IMG/VR virus record: IMGVR_UViG_3300009285_001197
Location: 1 to 64,000 of that record
DNA length: 64,000 nt
Source: a virus
Reading direction: 5' to 3' (one strand)
Shown here: piece after piece, positions 1,995-48,697 of the stretch
How the letters are laid out: every line of letters begins with the position of its first letter
Position numbering within the stretch: position 1 is the stretch's first letter
Made by a program: the position numbers and the translations under genes
The notes under the pieces: generated by a model
What the model was told of the DNA's origin: nothing
The model's input: only the letters and a program-made list of their open reading frames with translations
Database searches by the model: none

Positions 1995-4900
1995 TTACCT
2001 ATGTAGAACTACAGTCGGTTTGCGCTGAGCTATTGTCAACTGCGCACTTGAATGTTCAGCTGGAACATAAAGCGCCCCAGTAAAGCTGCACTCGGCAAGG
2101 GTTAACCCCCTAACATGTATGCCTGATGTAATTTCACCATTGAGATAACTAACCGCGCTTGGTCTAGCATAAAATCTCGCTCGGGCTGTGAGTTCAGCTG
2201 TGGGGCTCGACCTCGCAAAACATTCTGCTAAAATAGGTATCCCTGTAAGTACCGACCCTCTGACACTGGTACTGGCGTTGACCTGCGATGAAAGCGCTGC
2301 CCAGTGAGTGAGCACGCCTACAACGGCAGATTGAGCAAATGAAGTGGCCAGCATTACTTTTGGAAAGTACAAATTCAGCGCGCTCAAAGTAGACTGGCTA
2401 ACGCAATTAGCCTCTAGCGGTTTAGGCACCATTATGGTAGGGGCTCTGGCAGATGCTGCGACAATTGAGCTTCCGCCAAGCGTAATCCCGCATAGCATGT
2501 CAGCTGTAGTGATCGCAAAACCACCTGCAGCGGCAGTAGGCAAAGGCGTGCTAGTTTGTAAAAAGCCAATCGCAACCGCAGAGGAATGTACCGCCCCATC
2601 AACTGACTGCATGGTAGAGAGCTTAGCCCGGGCATTAGCGAGCGCTGAGAAAGCTCCATATAACCTGATCTGCGTAGTCAATGACATCTGAGACCATGAG
2701 TAACCATATGCTTTTGATGGGGCCAGTAGTAGTGTGGTTGTTCGTAAAACTGACAAAGAGGTGCATGAAGTTTGTGCTACCAACCGTATAGCCGTAGACA
2801 TGGCAGCTGAGGCGCTGGACACAGCCTGCAACTGGATAGAAAAAGAGACGCCCAGCGTACCCGATGTAGTTGCCGATGCTGTGATGGATGCGCCGACAAG
2901 TATTTCAGTGCTCAGCCCAGAGCTAGTAGCAGAAACCCCACTCACAGCCCCAACAAGCCTCGCCCCCAAAACAGTAAGCGTGGCTAATGTACTCGCCTCG
3001 TCAGTTACCCGTACTGCCACGCCGTCAATAGCGTCGGTTAACCTTGCTAGAGCCTTTGATCCACGCCCAAAAGCGAATGTCGTAACGCGCGTTCCAGTGC
3101 CTTGGCTCGTAAAAAAACGAAGTCCGCTGTTAGCCATCCACCCGTCATTAACTGCAACAACGCCGTAAGGCGAAATTAACCCTGTGTCCTCCCAGTTAGT
3201 AGCGTCGTCTGATTTATATACCATCCCACCGGTAGTGCGTAGACCCAAGAAGCCGTCGGTTGGAGACTCGCCCCGTATCAGCTTTACGTCGTAAAGGTGG
3301 GGGGCAACACTACTCAGCGTTGATGTGAGAAAACCGTCGCTACTATGAAGTCTCGCCAAGTCAAAGCACACCACTTCCCCTGAAACGGTTTCCAGCACAT
3401 TGTCTATTGGTATGTTTGTCCAATAGAAAATACTTCCACCGGAAGGGAACGTAGAGACTGGGCATCTGTAATAATCAAAACGATTATAATACGCAACGTA
3501 CTTACACCAGTAATACGCCCCTTTTGAAAAAAACAAACTCGTGTACCATACTGCCGGACCAGTAAACGGCGTCCAAGTTATCCCGTCAGGCGACTTCGCT
3601 GCTGCGGTACTGTCAAACGAGATGGCGTAATATTCACCGTTTAAATATTTAATTACGTATACGTCTGCGCTATGTGTATACGTAGCCACCCACGTTTTTC
3701 CATCAAGTGAGTATGAAATAACTGGCCCACTATGACCTATGAATAACTGGGAACAGTAGCCAAACCACTCATTGTCTATTACTGTAGGCGCTGTATACGC
3801 CCCAGAAACAAGCGTATTTACATCGGGTGAATGAGCGTATACGGTTGAACCAACACCACCAATGAGTAAAGCGTTACGTGTTACGGCAAGATTCCCACTA
3901 ATAGCCTTCGGTGCCCATGTCTCCCCGAAACGTACACCCCATTCCAGCCCTGGACGCGCATATAGTAGCGTCTCAACTCTAAGGTCAGATGAGCATGCAA
4001 CAGAGGCTTGTAGGACGACGGCGGGTTGTTGCAAAGGGTTTAGCGACGTACTTGACCTGCTGTTACACCATGAGCCACCATTGACCGTGTAGTCAATTGG
4101 CATACTCCATGTATCTTGTAAGTAGTTAACCCACGTACCGCCAATATACAGCGATAACGTGCTTACTAAGTAGCCTGCAATACGTACTGAATTTTTTGCT
4201 GGATATACCGCACCGCCACCAGCAGTTATGTCCCGCAACAATTCATTTGGTGGACTTACCCACGTAGCACCATTGTCATTTGACACTCGTAGGTTTGAGT
4301 AACTAAACAGAGGCACCAGTGGGTGCAGCACATGCACTCCACCATGTTGCGTAGGCACGTAGGCTACGTTACACGTTTCCACGCCAGATGTGTTTGGATA
4401 CCATGTTATTCCATCAAGAGTGCGATGGGCAGCTGTGTCTTCGTCAGAAAACAGAACTCCACCTGATAGGCGCATATTTCCAAGAAATGACCTGCCAGTG
4501 CTCCACGATATTCCGTCTGTCGAGGTGTATCCGTTAATTACGAATCTGTTTCCAACAAAGCAGCACTGTGAAATCCCACTTACAGGGAGGGTTCTGATTG
4601 TCCAGTTTATTCTGTCAATGGAGGTTGCGTACTGATTTGTAGCTACACCTGATATGTATGGAGCAACCGCAACATATATGTTTGAGCCGTAAGCTAAGTC
4701 GCTCCATTTGGCAGCGAACGGTAACGTGAGCGTATGAAAATTACCTGCTTGAAAGTAAACAGCGTCGCTATTATTGGCTCGATAGCCATGCACCTGCGTT
4801 ACGTTTAGACTACCGCCACGAACAAGGACATAAAGCGAATCATTTACTGCGCGGACATTTCCCCAATATCCAGCGGCAAGTTGCATCACCGCATACTGAC

Positions 4901-6023
4901 CAGAATCTGAATTAAAGACCAGCGCTGATGTCTGCAGCGCCATTTCAGTTGACGGGTAATTATTAACGACCGTGTATCCGCACAACACGGTCGTGCTACC
5001 AAGTGTGTCTGCGTAAAGACGCCGCTGCCCAGCGATTACAGACTCAGCTCCGTAAAACCAGCCTGCCGGAACAACGTCTGAAAGAACGACCTCGGAAGCT
5101 GAGAGTCTCAATGCAATTGCGCTAGCTTCCGAGCTTATGGATGCAAGCCATAGAAATGGATCAGTTGTTAAGTCTGCGCTAGCCGTGGCTACAGCGACCA
5201 CTCCCCAACTGGCGTCTGGAAAGCGTTCCTCGATAAACGCTGAGACACTTGCAAATGAAGCAGGTGTCGCCGCGAATCGTATAGCCGTTGAGAGGATCGC
5301 CGCAGTGCTAGAACTGGCAGTTACTGTTGCGAAAATATCAGGCGATAGTGTTCGTAAAACAATAGTGACATAGGCGCGATTAGTTGAACTGTCCGCAGTG
5401 GATAATACTGGTCCGGTATCAGTGAGGGCACTTGAAAGCTCCCCGGTTATTAGCGCTATTCCGCCGCCAGCACCCAGTGACGTTGAGCTGTCCGCACGCT
5501 TAACAAGGTTAACTTGCTGGCCAAAATTGCTTACAAGCGTGCCTGTAATTGTGTTGGTCTGTGTCGCATCTTTATCCAGACCTATAAAGCTTGCGACGAG
5601 TGACCCGGCAGGAAAGGGGTCCCCCGCCGTAGCGACGGCGGTTGTTTCTATGTAGTCTGTGGCAGGCTCAAGGACATGCGAGCCTGAGTCCTCATACCAA
5701 ACCGCTGGACCAGCTGCATCTCTGAAAACAAAAATCTGTGCCGTGGTATAGCTACCAGCATCTGAGACAGCTACGTTACTTTGCGTACCAGCAACGTCTT
5801 TTCCAAATAATCGCAGCGTTACTGCGCCAGCTACGTCTGGCGTAACTACATTTGAAGCCGCGTTGTGAAATGTCCAGCCGGATACGGCATCTCCATTAAA
5901 ACTGGCGTGATTTATAGCCAGTAGGGCGTAATCACCATCCTGATACCCTGCTGGCCAAGGAACAGATAGCGCACCTGTGCCCGCCGTAAATGCTCCGGCA
6001 GCTACAAATGATGGCTGGGCCAA
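1995..6023 (-). CDS. Large tail protein with Asp-box-like propeller repeats
   Basis: 1342 residues, probably a tail spike or receptor-binding component. The start is TTG, supported by AGGAG six bases upstream. The N-terminal ~230 residues resemble a virion-attachment beta domain. From about residue 465 to 940 there are spaced Asp-box/BNR-like motifs (SxDGxTW type: ISIDRINW-like near 468, TDGISW 501, LDGITW 536, NDNGATW 584, LDGKTW 776, PDGITW 814, DDATNW 939), the signature of sialidase-type beta propellers, which bind or cleave glycans. The last ~300 residues are Ala/Ser/Thr-rich imperfect repeats. It lies just after two fibre-like paralogues. No catalytic residues could be assigned, so glycan binding rather than hydrolysis is the safer reading. 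Confidence 0.7.
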   Translation of the reverse strand: MAQPSFVAAGAFTAGTGALSVPWPAGYQDGDYALLAINHASFNGDAVSGWTFHNAASNVVTPDVAGAVTLRLFGKDVAGTQSNVAVSDAGSYTTAQIFVFRDAAGPAVWYEDSGSHVLEPATDYIETTAVATAGDPFPAGSLVASFIGLDKDATQTNTITGTLVSNFGQQVNLVKRADSSTSLGAGGGIALITGELSSALTDTGPVLSTADSSTNRAYVTIVLRTLSPDIFATVTASSSTAAILSTAIRFAATPASFASVSAFIEERFPDASWGVVAVATASADLTTDPFLWLASISSEASAIALRLSASEVVLSDVVPAGWFYGAESVIAGQRRLYADTLGSTTVLCGYTVVNNYPSTEMALQTSALVFNSDSGQYAVMQLAAGYWGNVRAVNDSLYVLVRGGSLNVTQVHGYRANNSDAVYFQAGNFHTLTLPFAAKWSDLAYGSNIYVAVAPYISGVATNQYATSIDRINWTIRTLPVSGISQCCFVGNRFVINGYTSTDGISWSTGRSFLGNMRLSGGVLFSDEDTAAHRTLDGITWYPNTSGVETCNVAYVPTQHGGVHVLHPLVPLFSYSNLRVSNDNGATWVSPPNELLRDITAGGGAVYPAKNSVRIAGYLVSTLSLYIGGTWVNYLQDTWSMPIDYTVNGGSWCNSRSSTSLNPLQQPAVVLQASVACSSDLRVETLLYARPGLEWGVRFGETWAPKAISGNLAVTRNALLIGGVGSTVYAHSPDVNTLVSGAYTAPTVIDNEWFGYCSQLFIGHSGPVISYSLDGKTWVATYTHSADVYVIKYLNGEYYAISFDSTAAAKSPDGITWTPFTGPAVWYTSLFFSKGAYYWCKYVAYYNRFDYYRCPVSTFPSGGSIFYWTNIPIDNVLETVSGEVVCFDLARLHSSDGFLTSTLSSVAPHLYDVKLIRGESPTDGFLGLRTTGGMVYKSDDATNWEDTGLISPYGVVAVNDGWMANSGLRFFTSQGTGTRVTTFAFGRGSKALARLTDAIDGVAVRVTDEASTLATLTVLGARLVGAVSGVSATSSGLSTEILVGASITASATTSGTLGVSFSIQLQAVSSASAAMSTAIRLVAQTSCTSLSVLRTTTLLLAPSKAYGYSWSQMSLTTQIRLYGAFSALANARAKLSTMQSVDGAVHSSAVAIGFLQTSTPLPTAAAGGFAITTADMLCGITLGGSSIVAASARAPTIMVPKPLEANCVSQSTLSALNLYFPKVMLATSFAQSAVVGVLTHWAALSSQVNASTSVRGSVLTGIPILAECFARSSPTAELTARARFYARPSAVSYLNGEITSGIHVRGLTLAECSFTGALYVPAEHSSAQLTIAQRKPTVVLHR

Positions 6024-31989: not shown

Positions 31990-32006
31990 ATAAGGAGAAA
32001 GTTTCT

Positions 32007-32207
32007 GTGAATATTATTCTCGAACTTATCGAAGGAATTGCTAATGGTGGACACACAAGCCTTATCCTCCCGAAAGGATTGATGCAGAATGAAAGCTGCT
32101 TAAAGTGCGCATACGGCGGGGAAAACTTAACTGTCAATTTCTGCAAACGCCCACTAGATCAGAAATGTCATAAGGCTATACCCGACGTCGCTTTAACCAG
32201 CTATTGA
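32007..32207 (+). CDS. Small Cys-containing protein, 66 aa
   Basis: 66 residues starting at GTG with AAGGAG nine bases upstream. Contains Cys pairs ('ESCLKCAYGG' and 'NFCKRPLDQKC'), possibly zinc-binding. It lies just before the cassette-like region and has phage-typical base composition. Function unknown. Confidence 0.55.
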   Translation: MNIILELIEGIANGGHTSLILPKGLMQNESCLKCAYGGENLTVNFCKRPLDQKCHKAIPDVALTSY

Positions 32208-32308
32208 GTAGATATAAGTGATGTCCGAGTGGAACGCAGAAATAACCGGCGACTGAAAGCCGTCCGCGTTGATTGCCGGGTTAGCACACAACAAAAAAGG
32301 AGCAAAAA

Positions 32309-32488
32309 ATGAAAATAGAAATCAGGCTCAACGAAGAAACCGAGGAGAAAGAACTGTATCTTTTTGGTGATTTTCAGGCTTCGTGGAATATACTGGTAGA
32401 TGACAGTAAGGTAATTATTCCTTACGCGATAGATGCGGCTATAAAGATCGGAGAAGATTGGACGCCAAGCGGCGTCCCTCTTGAATGA
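32309..32488 (+). CDS. Small protein, 59 aa, first gene of the cassette-like array
   Basis: 59 residues, acidic, with AAGGAG six bases before the ATG. Its last codons run through a GGACGCC-AAGC-GGCGTCC hairpin and end four bases before GTTGGGC, the right end of a cassette boundary. No family recognised. AT-rich in its first part, unlike the GC-richer cassettes that follow. Confidence 0.6.
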   Translation: MKIEIRLNEETEEKELYLFGDFQASWNILVDDSKVIIPYAIDAAIKIGEDWTPSGVPLE

Positions 32489-32498
32489 CGGGTTGGGC
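32450..32498 (+). repeat. Partial attC-like site B
   Basis: The hairpin GGACGCC-AAGC-GGCGTCC is followed by CTCTTGA and by GTTGGGC (32492-32498), which fits the GTTRRRY right end of an attC site. GAGAAG upstream can pair with CTCTT. A canonical RYYYAAC left end is not seen, so only the 3' half is convincing. Confidence 0.45.
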
Positions 32499-32512
32499 AA
32501 CGAAAGGATACT

Positions 32513-32797
32513 ATGAAACGCGAACTTAATGACACAGAAAAACGTGTAATAGATGCTGCAAAAACACTTGAAAAAGACAAGTGGCGCGGTACGTGGGGAG
32601 CAACATCTATCCAGATTCTCGGCTGGCCCGATTCTGGTAAAGCCTACATGGCAAAAGAGCTTGGAATTTCTGCCGCAATAGCCGAGTTGCGAAGGCGCGG
32701 AATTGTGATTATGCATCATCGGCATGGGTACAGGCTGGCAGTGCCCAACGTAAAATTAACCAGCGGTGCGCACGCCGCACCCGAAACGGAGAAATGA
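32513..32797 (+). CDS. Cassette gene, 94 aa, winged-helix-like
   Basis: 94 residues, starting 15 bases after GTTGGGC with AAAGG upstream of the ATG, a usual spacing for cassette genes. The body 'TEKRVIDAAKTLEKD', with 'AYMAKELGISAAIAELRRRGIVIM', looks like a small winged-helix DNA-binding unit. The end (VPNVKLTSG) is encoded by the GCCCAAC-type left end of the next site, typical of genes reading into attC. Function unknown. Confidence 0.6.
   Translation: MKRELNDTEKRVIDAAKTLEKDKWRGTWGATSIQILGWPDSGKAYMAKELGISAAIAELRRRGIVIMHHRHGYRLAVPNVKLTSGAHAAPETEK
32743..32785 (+). repeat. Partial attC-like site C (left half)
   Basis: GCCCAAC (32743-32749) fits RYYYAAC and is followed by a GCGGTGCG...CGCCGCAC-type hairpin. 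No GTTRRRY right end follows, so the site appears decayed, and the stretch 32798-32947 has no convincing gene beyond a possible 25-codon ORF at 32800-32877. Confidence 0.4.
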
Positions 32798-32947
32798 ACA
32801 TGAACGCTACCGAAAGACTAAGGCAGTACATCGGGTCGGAAGAAAGATTAAGAAGGACGGTACGCCTGGGGCAGTAATTTATGAGATATTGGCTAGTTAC
32901 AATAAAAATCCGGTAAAGGTCGTGAATTAGACTGGAGGAGATAGAAC

Positions 32948-33238
32948 ATGAGCATAAGGAAAATTTTTGAGGATTGGTACTTTGGCGAGAACCATACAGG
33001 TAAAGCAAGGGAGCGTAGCGAGAATGGAGGGTACAGATACATCGCCGCCGAAGCTGCGTGGAATACGTGGCAAACAGCAACAAAAGCAGAGCGCGAGGCG
33101 TGCGCAAGGCTATTCGAGGACGCTGACGGCGTGGTGCACGAGCGCACCGCTGCGAACTGGCGCGACCCTGCGCGGGCCATTCGGATGCGATCTAACGTAA
33201 AGGTAAGGGGTCGCCCGCTTTTGGGCGATCCCTCTTGA
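32948..33238 (+). CDS. Cassette gene, 96 aa
   Basis: 96 residues with GGAGGAG nine bases before the ATG. The middle 'AAEAAWNTWQTATKAEREACARLFED' matches a helical motif common in small phage proteins of unknown role. The last 16 residues (RSNVKVRGRPLLGDPS) are encoded inside the attC-like palindrome at 33190-33252. GC content is higher than in the flanking phage genes. Confidence 0.65.
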   Translation: MSIRKIFEDWYFGENHTGKARERSENGGYRYIAAEAAWNTWQTATKAEREACARLFEDADGVVHERTAANWRDPARAIRMRSNVKVRGRPLLGDPS

Positions 33239-33252
33239 CCGCAGGGTTGGGC
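33190..33252 (+). repeat. attC-like recombination site D
   Basis: 63 bases bounded by ATCTAAC (RYYYAAC) and GTTGGGC (GTTRRRY). The inner arms AAGGGGTCGCCC and GGGCGATCCCTCTT pair with extrahelical bases, the architecture of integron attC sites. It lies at the 3' end of the 32948 gene and 22 bases before the next cassette gene. Confidence 0.75.
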
Positions 33253-33273
33253 GGTTTTAACTGGAGAAGAGAA

Positions 33274-33576
33274 ATGAGCGAAACAGCAAAATGTGCAATT
33301 TGTGGCGAGCCAATGCCGCCAGGCGAGGAAATGTTCAAGTACCACGGATACAGTGGGGATTGCCCAAAGCCACCAATGCCGAAACCTCCGGCAAAGCAGA
33401 AAATACCGGGATTGATTGCCGCTGCCGCATACGCGGACAACAAGAGCGTATCAATGCTCTTCGATACCTCAGAACAGGCGCACGCTTTCGTTGCTGGCAT
33501 AGAGGCTGATGTGGCGCCCAACGTGGATTTCAGCGGCTCGACGCCGCTTTATGGCGGCGAGTCCGCTGGAAAGTAG
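33274..33576 (+). CDS. Cassette gene, 100 aa, Cys-containing
   Basis: 100 residues starting 22 bases after a GTTGGGC cassette end, SD GGAGAAG. N-terminal 'AKCAICGEPMPPGEE' is a CxxC zinc-knuckle-like site with 'YHGYSGDCPKPP' supplying more ligands; Pro-rich linker; C-terminal alpha/beta part. The last residues (PNVDFSGSTPLYGGES) are encoded within the next attC-like palindrome. Function unknown. Confidence 0.65.
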   Translation: MSETAKCAICGEPMPPGEEMFKYHGYSGDCPKPPMPKPPAKQKIPGLIAAAAYADNKSVSMLFDTSEQAHAFVAGIEADVAPNVDFSGSTPLYGGESAGK

Positions 33577-33584
33577 GGTTCGGC
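33516..33584 (+). repeat. attC-like recombination site E
   Basis: 69 bases from GCCCAAC (33516-33522) to GTTCGGC (33578-33584; one mismatch to GTTRRRY). TTTCAGCGG and CCGCTGGAAA form the long arms and CGACGCCGC with GGCGGCG the inner part, around a TTTAT loop. It overlaps the end of the 33274 gene. Confidence 0.7.
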
Positions 33585-33620
33585 GTCTTATCGGAGCCGA
33601 CTTTTGAGAAAGGGAACGCA

Positions 33621-33950
33621 ATGGAAAAACTAGACATGAAGCACCGACCGAGCGCCGAGTATCGCTACTGGCTGTACGACCCCGAAGGCGACGGAATGGT
33701 GTACTTCCGCACGCAAACGGAGCGCGACAAACAAGCTGCGAGGGCGATTGATGCGTACCTCGATGACGGGTGGGCGGACGAGGTTGAACTCGTGGCAGCC
33801 GGAGAGTTGACGCACTTTGCGCAGGTGCTTGATAAGCAGATGCGGCCAGCGGACGAAGACCTCGACGAAGACTGGTACGACGGCGAATGCACCGCGTGGC
33901 CCGAAGGCATGGACTGGGGCGAGAGCGGAAGCGGACGAAGGCCGCTGTAG
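33621..33950 (+). CDS. Cassette gene, 109 aa
   Basis: 109 residues, acidic, beginning 37 bases after the preceding cassette end with AAAGGG upstream. The first half 'PSAEYRYWLYDPEGDGMVYFRT' followed by 'ERDKQAARAIDAYLDDGWADEVELVAAGEL' resembles small phage/plasmid proteins of unknown function; 'DEDLDEDWYDGECTAWPEGMDW' is strongly acidic. It ends within a palindrome before GTTGGGC. Function unknown. Confidence 0.65.
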   Translation: MEKLDMKHRPSAEYRYWLYDPEGDGMVYFRTQTERDKQAARAIDAYLDDGWADEVELVAAGELTHFAQVLDKQMRPADEDLDEDWYDGECTAWPEGMDWGESGSGRRPL

Positions 33951-33977
33951 ATAATCGCCTGGAGCGTAGGGTTGGGC
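33915..33977 (+). repeat. Partial attC-like site F
   Basis: GTTGGGC (33971-33977) is a good right end, and GGCGA...AGCGG can pair with CCGCT...TCGCC around ACGAAGG. The expected RYYYAAC left end is absent, so the site is degenerate on its 5' side. Confidence 0.5.
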
Positions 33978-34002
33978 GGCGACGCCCGGAAAGGACAAAG
34001 AT

Positions 34003-34614
34003 ATGAAGTTTGATGACATGAACCCGATGCAGCGACGGTTGCACAACGTGGCATGCGTATTGGACGCGGATGGTGACGAGTACGGTTTTGTTCCGCTGTT
34101 GCTGGAAACGATCGAAGCGCTCGCAACAGCACCTCTAAAAGAGTTCACGCCTGTCGAGTTCCTGCTGGATGGCGCACGACTGAAGCTGTCGTTTCGGCAG
34201 GAAGAATGCGAGTCATGCGGAGCGTCGAGTGCGCACTTCCACACGGCGCCAATGGATCAGTACGCCGAAGAACTGCGAGGCTTGTGGGTGGCGCTGGTGC
34301 CGGCAGAAAACGACAGGCATTTGAAGATGAAGATTCCGACGCCGACTTTTGGAGACAAAGACATGACCTGCCACACAAAAGAACAACTTGAAGAAATGCT
34401 GTTTGACGTGGTGAATGAACTCGACCTGTCGGACTTGATGATCGAAGAGCACGGCCCGCTTGGAACGCCACCGGCAACACTGGTGCGGCTTGTGCTTGAG
34501 CGCAAGGATTTGGAGATTCGCATGCTCAAACAGGGCTTCGTTGCCGTGACGCCGAACGCCAGCGTGAGCGGCGCGGAGCCGCAGGCGGAGCGTCCGACTC
34601 GACGCAACAGTTAG
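34003..34614 (+). CDS. Cassette gene, 203 aa
   Basis: 203 residues, the longest gene in the array, beginning 26 bases after the preceding cassette end, with AAAGGA upstream. Segments: 'DDMNPMQRRLHNVACVLDADGDEYGFVPLLLETIEAL', a 'CESCGASSAHFH' metal-site-like motif, and a second unit 'TKEQLEEMLFDVVNELDLSDLMIEE'. It could be two small domains fused. The C-terminus (PNASVSGAEPQAERPTRRN) is encoded by the attC-like site. Function unknown. Confidence 0.65.
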   Translation: MKFDDMNPMQRRLHNVACVLDADGDEYGFVPLLLETIEALATAPLKEFTPVEFLLDGARLKLSFRQEECESCGASSAHFHTAPMDQYAEELRGLWVALVPAENDRHLKMKIPTPTFGDKDMTCHTKEQLEEMLFDVVNELDLSDLMIEEHGPLGTPPATLVRLVLERKDLEIRMLKQGFVAVTPNASVSGAEPQAERPTRRNS

Positions 34615-34616
34615 AC
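34551..34616 (+). repeat. attC-like recombination site G
   Basis: 66 bases from GCCGAAC (one mismatch to RYYYAAC) to GTTAGAC (34610-34616, exact GTTRRRY). GAGCGGC and GCCGC plus GACGCC and GGCG-GA-GCGTC can pair as nested arms. The overlapping gene ends two bases before the right end. Confidence 0.65.
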
Positions 34617-34628
34617 ATCGGAGGAAAA

Positions 34629-34811
34629 ATGAAAGTCACATGCGAACTTAATATTGGTAACGACCAAGAGCATCCGGGGGTCAAGATTCTGTTTGAGGGA
34701 GAACCAACGGAAAAGCGCGGATTCATCCACCTACGGATAGGTGATGTTCAGTATGAGTTACGGCCATCAGAAGTGGCAGCGGCATTGCAAAGGGTGCGTA
34801 GCGATGCCTAA
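34629..34811 (+). CDS. Cassette gene, 60 aa
   Basis: 60 residues with GGAGG six bases before the ATG, 12 bases after the preceding GTTAGAC end. Beta-rich beginning (KVTCELNIGNDQEHPGVKILFEG) and 'RIGDVQYELRPSEVAAALQRV'. Its TAA stop is the TAA of the GCCTAAC left end of the next site, a hallmark of cassette genes. Function unknown. Confidence 0.7.
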   Translation: MKVTCELNIGNDQEHPGVKILFEGEPTEKRGFIHLRIGDVQYELRPSEVAAALQRVRSDA

Positions 34812-34895
34812 CGTAGAGCTAAGGGGCGCGAGCGATGACGCAACAACGAAGTGAAACCGGCTGTTCGAGCGTCCCATTTGAGCGCCTTGTTATGC
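34806..34895 (+). repeat. attC-like recombination site H
   Basis: 90 bases from GCCTAAC (exact) to GTTATGC (one mismatch). TAAGGGGCGC pairs with GAGCGCCTTG at the outer arms and GACGC with GCGTC inside. The longer loop region matches the size variation known for attC sites. Confidence 0.75.
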
Positions 34896-35224
34896 CTGCT
34901 GGGGCCGTTGCGCTGCGGCCAGTGCGTTTTTTGCCTGGCGACGGACTGCGCTACTACACGGCCACAACATTTCCGCGCGACCGGCGTGCAGGATGTGACA
35001 TGTATTACCGCAGATGCCGCGCCTTCGGCGGCGTGGAAGGCGAGCAAGCAGGAATTTGCGACGTGCTGGACGCGAGCGGTGATGTGGTGGCCGACTTCCC
35101 GCTTACTGCGCATGGCCTGGACTACCTGTACCGCGCACTTGGGTGTCGGGTAGATGGGCATAACGTTCAAATTGAGGCGCGGCGCGCTGTTGCGCCGTCG
35201 CTCTCGAATGCAGGGTTAGGCTGA
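34892..35224 (+). CDS. Cassette gene, 110 aa
   Basis: 110 residues if translation starts at the ATG inside the GTTATGC right end; longer in-frame starts at 34835 lie in the palindrome. No Shine-Dalgarno is visible. Contains 'LPGDGLRYYTATTFPRDRRAGCDMYYRRCRAFGGVEG' and 'ICDVLDASGDVVADFPLTAHGLDYLYRALGCRV'. The C-terminal 'NVQIEARRAVAPSLSNAGLG' is encoded by the next attC-like site and is of the kind often seen at ends of environmental integron cassette proteins. Function unknown. Confidence 0.65.
   Translation: MPAGAVALRPVRFLPGDGLRYYTATTFPRDRRAGCDMYYRRCRAFGGVEGEQAGICDVLDASGDVVADFPLTAHGLDYLYRALGCRVDGHNVQIEARRAVAPSLSNAGLG
35158..35221 (+). repeat. attC-like recombination site I
   Basis: 64 bases from GCATAAC to GTTAGGC (35215-35221, exact GTTRRRY). 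Arms GAGGCGCGGCGC and GCGCCGTCGCTCTC pair almost fully around a short loop. The left end is the exact inverse of the right end of site H (GTTATGC), as expected if the two ends come from one recombination history. Confidence 0.78.
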
Positions 35225-35242
35225 ACTTTTAAGGAGATCAGG

Positions 35243-35428
35243 ATGAAATTTAATGAAACGCTGATTTATAGGGTACTAAGTATTCCTGGAAATGAATGGG
35301 AAAAAAGTTGCGGATATGTGTTTGCATTAAAAATTCCAGTCCTGATTGTGATGATGCTTGTCGGAGTTCCGACTGCAATTGTGATTGATTTTTTCTACGC
35401 AGCATTGAAAGTTGACGGTGATGCCTAA
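35243..35428 (+). CDS. Cassette gene, small membrane protein, 61 aa
   Basis: 61 residues with AAGGAG seven bases before the ATG, 21 bases after GTTAGGC. A single membrane helix (VFALKIPVLIVMMLVGVPTAI) follows a polar N-terminus. Its stop TAA forms part of GCCTAAC (35423-35429), again a cassette-type end, although no right half of a site follows. Function unknown. Confidence 0.65.
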   Translation: MKFNETLIYRVLSIPGNEWEKSCGYVFALKIPVLIVMMLVGVPTAIVIDFFYAALKVDGDA

Positions 35429-35429
35429 C
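35423..35429 (+). repeat. Left half-site J (RYYYAAC only)
   Basis: GCCTAAC overlaps the stop of the 35243 gene exactly as at site H, but the following 50 bases contain no matching palindrome or GTTRRRY end. It probably marks the last, truncated cassette of the array. Confidence 0.4.
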
Positions 35430-35487
35430 GTGAAATAGACAACATACCGTGCAACGAAAGCAGGCATAAAACAAGGAGTAACGCGCC

Positions 35488-35679
35488 ATGCCATCATTGA
35501 AATCCGATATTTTCATCATAGTGAAAGCAGGTGACAAATCGTTTTCAATCGGTGGCGTTCTGCTTCCTGATGGCCGCTATGCCATCAAACGCGGACGATC
35601 CTGGGCGAAGAAGATCAGAACGACAACATTGAGCGAGATATTTACAGAAGCCCGCAAATGGGTGGTGATAAACAAATGA
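35488..35679 (+). CDS. Small basic protein, 63 aa
   Basis: 63 residues with AAGGAG nine bases before the ATG. 'DIFIIVKAGDKSFSIGGVLLPDGRYAIKRGRSWAKKIRTTTLSEIF' is a small basic beta/alpha protein, possibly nucleic-acid binding. It lies at the array edge and may be either cassette-borne or phage-native. Function unknown. Confidence 0.6.
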   Translation: MPSLKSDIFIIVKAGDKSFSIGGVLLPDGRYAIKRGRSWAKKIRTTTLSEIFTEARKWVVINK

Positions 35680-35765
35680 GAAACACTTTTCCCGCGTCGA
35701 TTAACGCAACTCAACAGGAGCGTGAAATCATGAGGTTTGGACGCCAAGCGGGTGCTGACGGGTAA
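35676..35765 (+). CDS. Possible tiny protein, 29 aa
   Basis: 29 codons whose ATG overlaps the preceding TGA (ATGA). No family and no other support; it ends at a small GACGG...CCGTC hairpin. Low confidence. Confidence 0.25.
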   Translation: MRNTFPASINATQQEREIMRFGRQAGADG

Positions 35766-47364: not shown

Positions 47365-47642
47365 TCCGCTTTATCACTGTCAAAAAAGCCGCAGAATTCA
47401 CAGGCTACACAGAGGCGGCAATCAAGACTAAAATACGCGATTTCGTCTGGCTCGAAAATGAAGTCTGGATTCGAGCCCCAGACGGTCGCGTATTGATTTC
47501 CATCGAGGGATATAACTCATGGGCAGAGTCTACAGTACCGGCGTCGAAGCCTTCTCGGCAACGACGATCCGTATCACCTTCACCTATCAGGGCATCCGTT
47601 GCCGCGAAGCACTCAAGCTTGAGCCCACTCCCGCTAATCTAA
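47361..47642 (+). CDS. xis: Excisionase-like protein
   Basis: 93 residues starting at GTG. 'IRFITVKKAAEFTGYTEAAIKTKIRDFVWLENEVWIRAPDGRVLISIEGY' matches the MerR-like winged helix of phage excisionases. The last ~40 residues overlap the integrase start in another frame and are Ser/Pro-rich. It would bend DNA at the attachment sites and steer the integrase to excision. Adjacent to the integrase as usual. Confidence 0.82.
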   Translation: MIRFITVKKAAEFTGYTEAAIKTKIRDFVWLENEVWIRAPDGRVLISIEGYNSWAESTVPASKPSRQRRSVSPSPIRASVAAKHSSLSPLPLI

Positions 47643-48697
47643 AGCGAGCGGCGAATCACCGGGCAGTCATCCTCGACGCTATCGAAAAAGGCACGTTTGA
47701 CTACGCAGTCACCTTTCCGAACAGCAAGCGAGTACCCCAGTTCAGTAACAAAACAGTTAGCGACCTGTCTTTTGCTAAGCACCTCGACCAGTGGTTGAAA
47801 AGTAGGTCAAAACAACTCAAAGCCAGCACCCTGCACGCCTATAGAAAGTTGGTCAACCGTATCCCAGAATCACTAGGCAGCATCCCGCTCCAAAGCCTGA
47901 AACGCGCAGACATTCGCGCGTGGCTGGAAACACTCAGCGCAGGTAATCAGTACCTGGCCAACCTGCAAAGTGTGCTGCGGAGTTCACTGCACGACGCTGC
48001 TGAAGACGGGTTGCTACAGACGAACCCAATGCAGGGATGGGTGTATCGCGTGAGGGATGTCATCAAGGAAGACAGTGACATCCTACCCTTCACCGCCATA
48101 GAGCAAGCTGTCATTCTGGCCCAGCTTACGGGTCAGAGCCTGAACCTTGTCCAGTTTGCCTTCTGGACAGGTTTACGGACCTCCGAACTCGCAGGGCTCG
48201 ACTGGGGTGACATCGACTGGCTACGAGGTATTGTCCGCATACGCAGAGTCAAAACACAAGTGTCAGACCAACCCGAGCCGCCCAAGAATCGCGGAAGCAT
48301 CCGTGACGTCAAACTTCTCCCCCTTGCCCTCGAAGCCCTGATACGACAGAAACAGTACACCTACGTGGCAGGTAAGGAAGTATTCCAAGACCCACTCCAC
48401 CTGGCTCGCTGGAAAGGGGACTTCCCTATCCGCACCAACCTGTGGAAACCTGCCTTACGTCGCGCAGGGGTGCTCTACCGTCGCCCATACCAGACACGCC
48501 ACACCTACGCCAGCATGATGCTCACCGCAGGCGAAGACCCTATGTGGGTCGCTCAACAGATGGGTCACAGCGACTGGGGTATGATTCGTAAGGTCTATGG
48601 AAAATGGATCACAGAAGATCGCCCGGATGCCGGGGCAAAAGCTGTCGCCATGTTTTCAAACATAAAGGGGGTTAAAAATGCTGCTCACAAAGAATGA
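47519..48697 (+). CDS. int: Tyrosine site-specific integrase
   Basis: 392 residues. An N-terminal arm-binding domain (TIRITFTYQGIRCREALKLEPTPANLKRA, DUF3596-like) and core-binding helices precede the catalytic domain: first Arg in 'FWTGLRTSELAGL', 'TRHTYASMML' with His-Arg, 'GHSDWGMIRKVYGKW' with the nucleophilic Tyr. This is a lambda-type phage integrase, not an integron integrase (no sign of the IntI extra helix region between motifs II and III that I can see). It overlaps xis. Confidence 0.9.
   Translation: MGRVYSTGVEAFSATTIRITFTYQGIRCREALKLEPTPANLKRAANHRAVILDAIEKGTFDYAVTFPNSKRVPQFSNKTVSDLSFAKHLDQWLKSRSKQLKASTLHAYRKLVNRIPESLGSIPLQSLKRADIRAWLETLSAGNQYLANLQSVLRSSLHDAAEDGLLQTNPMQGWVYRVRDVIKEDSDILPFTAIEQAVILAQLTGQSLNLVQFAFWTGLRTSELAGLDWGDIDWLRGIVRIRRVKTQVSDQPEPPKNRGSIRDVKLLPLALEALIRQKQYTYVAGKEVFQDPLHLARWKGDFPIRTNLWKPALRRAGVLYRRPYQTRHTYASMMLTAGEDPMWVAQQMGHSDWGMIRKVYGKWITEDRPDAGAKAVAMFSNIKGVKNAAHKE

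What the first reader, a model, noticed from the sequence alone, without database searches (positions are those of the whole stretch)
32450..35429. Integron-like gene-cassette array (attC cluster without integrase) in a phage genome
Eight or nine sites spaced by single small same-strand genes show the attC ends RYYYAAC and GTTRRRY and inner imperfect palindromes. Best sites: 33190-33252, 33516-33584, 34551-34616, 34806-34895 and 35158-35221. Intervals between right ends are about 280-750 bases, normal for cassettes. Several genes end inside the left half of the site (stop TAA in GCCTAAC), and their start codons follow the right end closely. No IntI gene is in the window, so this is a cluster of attC sites lacking an integrase carried by a virus, a possible vehicle for cassette spread.
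Basis: partly seen in the sequence, partly recalled or inferred. Interest (0 to 1): 0.92.

Follow-up and report, generated by a model that had tools for sequence, protein, structure and literature searches.

The report
Phage integron array, genes facing backwards
A bacterial virus carries a string of small genes separated by the recombination sites that integrons use to swap genes, but every gene points the opposite way from normal integron cassettes, and many other phages share this arrangement, some with their own integron integrase.

Summary
The attC cluster is real: a covariance model built from bacterial attC sites finds six sites in the window (E 4e-13 to 7e-5), all in one orientation, and no IntI is in the 65 kb virus record. 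Bacterial integrons scanned the same way give 61 sense to 5 antisense intervals. The reversal is general: 85 non-redundant viral contigs with attC arrays give 174 antisense to 44 sense. Viral contigs with intI show it too; 41 viral IntI form a virus-only clade (SH-aLRT 99) with bacterial intI-attC geometry and conserved attI-like sites. In the window, array, attI-like site and a conserved 63-aa gene form a 3.7 kb insertion absent from a backbone relative. Antisense ORFs of such arrays often encode DNA methyltransferases, Mom and Acb2/Tad1-like proteins. CALINs in phages are published (Qi et al. 2023); I found no description of reversed polarity, a viral IntI lineage with it, or phage attI in the papers searched. 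Recombination activity was not tested.

The parts
31990..35687 (.). Inserted block: array, attI-like site and 63-aa gene
   Evidence: Backbone relative L307 runs from the dCMP deaminase stop (window 31989) straight into the sequence of window 35688
32229..32286 (-). attC site 1, R' box degenerate (GTTCCAC)
   Evidence: CM 28.3 bits, E 7e-5; PWM 24.6; 94% over 51 bp to an attC of L298
32443..32498 (-). Decayed attC, left half only
   Evidence: left-half PWM 23.7 bits; CM 9.6 bits, E 3, not significant
32743..32762 (-). Decayed attC, right half only
   Evidence: right-half PWM 13.8 bits
33190..33252 (-). attC site
   Evidence: CM 54.4 bits; PWM 38.8
33516..33584 (-). attC site
   Evidence: CM 55.4 bits; PWM 24.9
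33958..33977 (-). Decayed attC, left half only
   Evidence: left-half PWM 19.2 bits
34551..34616 (-). attC site, weaker right half
   Evidence: CM 40.4 bits
34806..34895 (-). attC site
   Evidence: CM 40.9 bits; PWM 34.1; 28 bp identical, in reverse, to the attC after blaOXA-198 in a class 1 integron
35158..35221 (-). attC site, best
   Evidence: CM 61.8 bits; 88.7% to an attC of phage MW202573
35423..35456 (-). attI-like site at the fixed end of the array
   Evidence: block recurs upstream of the 63-aa gene in L298, L299, L300, L301, L229 and L276, diverging at the GTTRRRY box
32007..32207 (+). Small ORF (GTG start) at the left end of the insertion
   Evidence: same stop; lies inside the block absent from L307
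32309..32488 (+). cassette ORF, 59 aa
   Evidence: codon score +15.6
32513..32797 (+). cassette ORF, 94 aa
   Evidence: codon score +13.6
32948..33238 (+). cassette ORF, 96 aa
   Evidence: codon score +9.7
33274..33576 (+). cassette ORF, 100 aa
   Evidence: homologue (55% over 53 aa) is a cassette between two attC in the intI-bearing phage integron L137
33621..33950 (+). cassette ORF, 109 aa
   Evidence: viral homologues 40-76%; attC on both sides of the homologue in L006; third-position substitution bias
34003..34614 (+). cassette ORF, 203 aa, reads through attC 34551-34616
   Evidence: codon score +21.0
34629..34811 (+). cassette ORF, 60 aa; stop TAA lies in the box GCCTAAC
   Evidence: codon score +3.0
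34892..35224 (+). cassette ORF, 110 aa, coding strand uncertain by codon score
   Evidence: codon score -0.3 against -22.6 for the minus ORF
35243..35428 (+). cassette ORF, 61 aa; stop TAA lies in the attI-like R box
   Evidence: codon score +8.2
35488..35679 (+). Conserved 63-aa gene next to the attI-like site, in the place where intI would lie
   Evidence: 57-73% identity in phages of different backbones

Best explanation
The window holds an integrase-less phage integron: a cassette array plus a fixed attI-like site, inserted as one 3.7 kb block into the early operon of a tailed phage. It belongs to a widespread phage-borne kind of integron whose cassette genes face the opposite way from bacterial cassettes. 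Mechanism: IntI, encoded by related phages or supplied in trans by the host or a co-infecting phage, joins cassettes at attI; as in bacteria this fixes the attC orientation relative to attI and intI. Bacterial cassette genes point away from intI because they are read from Pc at attI. In these phages transcription comes from the upstream phage operon and runs towards attI/intI, so cassettes are kept whose gene points towards attI, that is antisense to attC. Shown here: the sites and their strand, the coding strand, the reversed polarity across many viruses, the virus-only IntI clade, the attI-like conservation, the empty site and recurring cassettes. Inferred: IntI acting in trans, promoter position as the selecting force, counter-defence as a main benefit.
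For: Six attC by CM, one orientation. Genes on the other strand. Polarity: bacteria 61 sense/5 antisense, viral intI loci 25/47, other viral arrays 44/174, contigs 10/64, robust to thresholds. Pfam hits in antisense ORFs (25 families in 129 proteins, 9 of them from the window) against 2 of 120 sense ORFs. attC opposite to intI and upstream of it in both groups. Viral IntI clade of 41 with support 98-99. attI-like sites next to phage intI and next to the 63-aa gene. Empty site in L307. Cassette relatives flanked by attC in other phages, one with intI.
Against: No IntI in this record, several sites decayed, so the array may be static now. Promoters and transcription were not tested. TJE1 and about a tenth of viral contigs have sense polarity. 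attI function rests on conservation only.
Confidence: 0.78

Rival explanations
1. Ordinary CALIN: a fragment of a bacterial chromosomal integron picked up by the phage through illegitimate recombination, now decaying, with no phage-specific system behind it.
For: No IntI; half-sites and degenerate boxes; CALINs in phages are known; attC sequences closest to betaproteobacterial ones such as L085.
Against: A bacterial fragment would keep sense polarity in either orientation; here and in most viral arrays it is antisense. The attI-like site and the 63-aa gene recur in phages of different backbones.
Confidence: 0.15
2. The sites are no longer recombination sites but have been kept as RNA or DNA structures (terminators, processing or translation-control hairpins) between operon genes, which would explain a fixed orientation relative to the genes.
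For: Fixed orientation relative to transcription; stop codons and starts lie at the site edges; attC are said to act as weak terminators (Qi et al.).
Against: R'/R'' boxes and unpaired spacer pattern match the bacterial recombination model along its full length; sequences diverge just at the crossover box of attI-like sites; phages with intI have the same arrays.
Confidence: 0.05
3. Spirochaete-type arrangement: intI rather than the genes is inverted.
For: Typical spirochaete integrons are reported with intI in reverse orientation (PMC9668308), and in phages genes and intI also point the same way.
Against: attC strand and array position relative to intI are as in other bacteria (158 of 160 on the opposite strand, 154 upstream); only the genes are flipped relative to attC.
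Confidence: 0.02

Closest known systems
CALINs in phages (Qi et al. 2023, PMC9892861: TJE1, PH101, P12002L, MW202573)
   Same: attC cluster without intI in a phage; MW202573 shares an attC at 88.7% and is also reversed; attC of TJE1, PH101 and P12002L recombine with IntI1 in their assay
   Different: reversed polarity, attI-like platform, empty site and a phage IntI clade are not described in the parts of that text I read; TJE1 has sense polarity
Bacterial chromosomal and mobile integrons (IntI, attI, attC arrays)
   Same: attC sequence and fold, attC orientation relative to intI, cassette-like spacing
   Different: genes antisense to attC; no IntI in this phage; no Pc at attI expected to serve the genes
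Spirochaete integrons with reversed intI (PMC9668308)
   Same: intI reported in reverse orientation there; genes and intI codirectional in phages
   Different: there intI is reversed; here the genes are reversed relative to attC
Phage integrons in temperate phages of Vibrio and Shewanella (Va_90-11-286_p16, M16-3)
   Same: integron parts, with intI, in phage genomes
   Different: described as pieces of host integrons; their IntI fall outside the viral clade; Vibrio example sense in the one interval scored

Membership tests
CALIN (cluster of attC sites lacking an integrase) | at least two attC close together, one orientation | tested here: met
   six CM hits within 3 kb
CALIN (cluster of attC sites lacking an integrase) | no IntI nearby | tested here: met
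   none over cut-off in the 65 kb record, which may be a fragment
CALIN (cluster of attC sites lacking an integrase) | detected by the IntegronFinder or HattCI models themselves | not testable with these tools
   own CM and PWM used instead
Complete integron | IntI gene | tested here: not met
Complete integron | attI site | tested here: inconclusive
   conserved attI-like block at 35423-35456 in seven loci; function untested
Complete integron | cassette genes in the same orientation as attC | tested here: not met
   genes plus, attC minus
Complete integron | site-specific recombination of attC and attI | not testable with these tools
   needs an attC x attI assay
Reversed-polarity phage integron (kind described here) | attC array in a phage with genes antisense to attC and an attI-like end | tested here: met
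Reversed-polarity phage integron (kind described here) | IntI of the viral clade in the same genome | tested here: not met
   absent from this record; present in relatives of the kind

The most novel reading that the evidence does not exclude
Phages carry their own old lineage of integrons, with a phage IntI clade, phage attI sites and a separate pool of reversed cassettes rich in DNA-modification and anti-defence genes. Integrase-less phages such as this one keep the attI platform and array as a satellite and exchange cassettes with an integrase supplied by other phages or by the host.
Probability: 0.6. Interest if true: 0.92.

Novelty: new variant of a known kind. Interest (0 to 1): 0.86.

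Why it matters
Integrons are treated as bacterial devices that phages pick up occasionally. A phage lineage with its own integrase, attI sites and reversed cassettes would be a gene-swapping device fitted to phage operons, and a plausible way for phages to shuffle methyltransferases, Mom and anti-CBASS genes against host defence. It predicts that polarity is set by where the promoter lies, and that rare reversed cassettes in bacterial arrays come from phages; both can be tested directly. Cassette callers that assume sense genes will misread these arrays.

Tried and rejected
Rfam at gathering thresholds: no match in the window. Strict RYYYAAC...GTTRRRY search: found one true site plus chance pairs, too strict. 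Near-DNA relatives in phage and plasmid collections: one short attC match each. Relatives of ORF 34835-35224 in viral contigs: none. Pattern search for the attI-like block: three loci, all on contigs already known. Idea that the minus-strand ORFs are the real genes: rejected by codon scores, homologues and the family search of sense ORFs. Idea that the tyrosine recombinase 47519-48697 is IntI: rejected. Fold of the 63-aa protein: no significant match. Two searches of an order of genomes needed a different handle.

Full report
WHAT WAS CLAIMED.

THE SITES. I trained an attC model on bona fide arrays: 80 bacterial loci anchored on IntI gave 119 non-redundant attC sites upstream of intI. A covariance model from 42 of them (bottom strand) finds six full-length matches in the 64 kb window, 61.8 to 28.3 bits (E 4e-13 to 7e-5), all in one orientation; the other two matches are noise at E 3. 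The PWM scan agrees: five sites score 25-45 bits, chance elsewhere in the window peaks at 14, and 200 dinucleotide shuffles of the region never reach 20. Three more places keep only one half of a site. The array is real and partly decayed.

THE STRAND. All sites lie on the minus strand. The genes are on plus: 9 of 10 plus ORFs have positive codon scores trained on the phage's own large genes, and all 13 minus ORFs tested are negative. In four viral homologues of ORF 33621 differences concentrate at third codon positions of the plus frame. So the genes are antisense to their attC.

IS THAT NORMAL? No. In the bacterial intI loci 61 intervals have the longer ORF in sense and 5 in antisense; 25 loci are mainly sense, none mainly antisense. 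In viral contigs that carry an IntI the counts are 25 and 47 (5 and 19 loci); ten of the sense intervals come from one contig, L139. In 85 non-redundant viral contigs found through an attC pattern, independently of IntI, they are 44 and 174 (10 and 64 contigs, binomial p 9e-11). The contrast holds at stricter length ratios. Longest ORFs can mislead in GC-rich DNA, so I checked the coding strand with protein families: among 129 proteins (120 antisense ORFs of phage arrays plus 9 ORFs of the window) there are hits in 25 Pfam families; of 120 sense ORFs from such intervals only 2 hit; PHROGs agree, 117 families against 5. Phage MW202573, listed by Qi et al. 2023 as a CALIN phage, is reversed too. 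Phage TJE1 is not, so the rule is strong but not universal.

WHAT IS REVERSED. The attC strand relative to intI and the place of the array, on the 5' side of intI, are the same in phages and bacteria (158 of 160 and 122 of 122 sites opposite to intI). Only the genes are flipped. Spirochaete integrons, where intI is reported in reverse (PMC9668308), are a different case.

A PHAGE LINEAGE. In an IntI tree 41 viral IntI form one virus-only clade (SH-aLRT 98). A search of 399 genomes of the order of L053 (titled a Burkholderiales MAG) found IntI in 124, none above 64% identity to the viral query. With the 12 nearest added the clade stays intact (99), and the four of those bacterial arrays that could be scored are sense. 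Upstream of phage intI lie conserved attI-like sites in at least two groups: group A keeps GTTACGCC and TCGAATT before the GTT box, and group B is conserved up to the GTT and then diverges. 17 of 49 contigs tested have Terminase_6N or Phage_portal over cut-off, including intI-bearing ones; none of the 36 attC-anchored contigs in that test has IntI over cut-off, so integrase-less arrays are common.

THE WINDOW'S OWN PLATFORM. The record (65,315 bp) is a tailed phage with portal, major head protein and family B DNA polymerase. Its array ends at 35423-35456 in a block (minus strand TTGCACGG...TCTATTTCAC^GTTAGGC) that recurs upstream of a 63-aa gene in six other viral loci and diverges at the GTTRRRY box. 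That gene (35488-35679) occupies the place of intI and is 57-73% identical across phages with different backbones. L300 holds the block twice with the same flank. The backbone relative L307 runs from the dCMP deaminase stop straight into the sequence of window 35688, so 31990-35687 is one insertion. Other backbone relatives (L308-L317) show no array, apart from one 18-bit hit in L309. Cassettes recur elsewhere: the homologue of ORF 33621 in L006 has attC on both sides, and the homologue of ORF 33274 is a cassette in the intI-bearing integron L137.

CARGO. The window's own cassette genes match no informative family. Across phage arrays the antisense ORFs include N6/N4 DNA methyltransferases (12 of 129), Mom (4 by Pfam, 6 by PHROGs), PAPS reductase, RNA ligase, NinG, QueC and two with an Acb2/Tad1 hairpin. 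This points to DNA modification and counter-defence, as Qi et al. suggested for methyltransferases.

MECHANISM. IntI joins cassettes at attI, which fixes attC orientation in the array. In bacteria the promoter Pc at attI reads away from intI, so useful cassettes carry genes in that direction. In these phages the operon promoter lies upstream of the array and reads towards attI and intI, so useful cassettes carry genes the other way. This explains the data with known integron chemistry and one difference, promoter position. It is inference: I mapped no promoters, and recombination cannot be tested here. For this phage the integrase would have to act in trans, or the array is now static.

NOVELTY. 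CALINs and integrons in phages, and recombination of phage attC by IntI1, are published (PMC9892861). I found no report of reversed polarity, a phage IntI clade with it, or phage attI platforms in the held papers. Preprints and many subscription journals are not held, and I did not read that paper's supplements, so priority is not established. I rate it a new variant of a known kind.

LIMITS. IMG/VR contigs may include misassigned bacterial DNA, though bacterial arrays would push polarity towards sense. The IntI tree used a quick method and a limited bacterial sample. The attC model was trained mostly on betaproteobacterial and class 1 arrays, so other attC types are under-detected.

Noticed in passing
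L300:560-760 and 3560-3760: The attI-like block and the start of the 63-aa gene occur twice in one phage contig with the same flank, as if the platform had been duplicated.
   Followed up: partly
window 35488-35679: The 63-aa protein is predicted as four strands and a helix (pLDDT 76); PUR-repeat proteins appear among the hits but none is significant (E 0.75 and above). It could be an accessory that binds single-stranded DNA, but this is only a lead.
   Followed up: partly
L298:5392-6480 and L300:4505-5167: In these phages a phage tyrosine integrase (not IntI) lies just downstream of the attI-like site and the 63-aa gene; several intI-bearing contigs also have a second tyrosine recombinase near intI.
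   Followed up: no
L014 (phage record KX853513, Virus Rctr41k), 4680-5678: An IntI-like recombinase (45% to IntI1) annotated as xerD in a phage from an enrichment culture; it groups with other viral IntI outside the main clade and no attC were detected by my model.
   Followed up: no
L150-L168 group of viral contigs (e.g. L158, L161, L164, L166): A second, more distant set of viral IntI with no attC detected by the model; they may use other attC types.
   Followed up: no
L181, L187, L220, L241: Viral loci with two attC clusters on opposite strands several kb apart, as if one phage carried two arrays.
   Followed up: no
L139 (isolate provirus contig, 48 kb): 17 attC next to intI with normal sense polarity, unlike the other viral loci; probably a chromosomal integron beside a prophage.
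   Followed up: no
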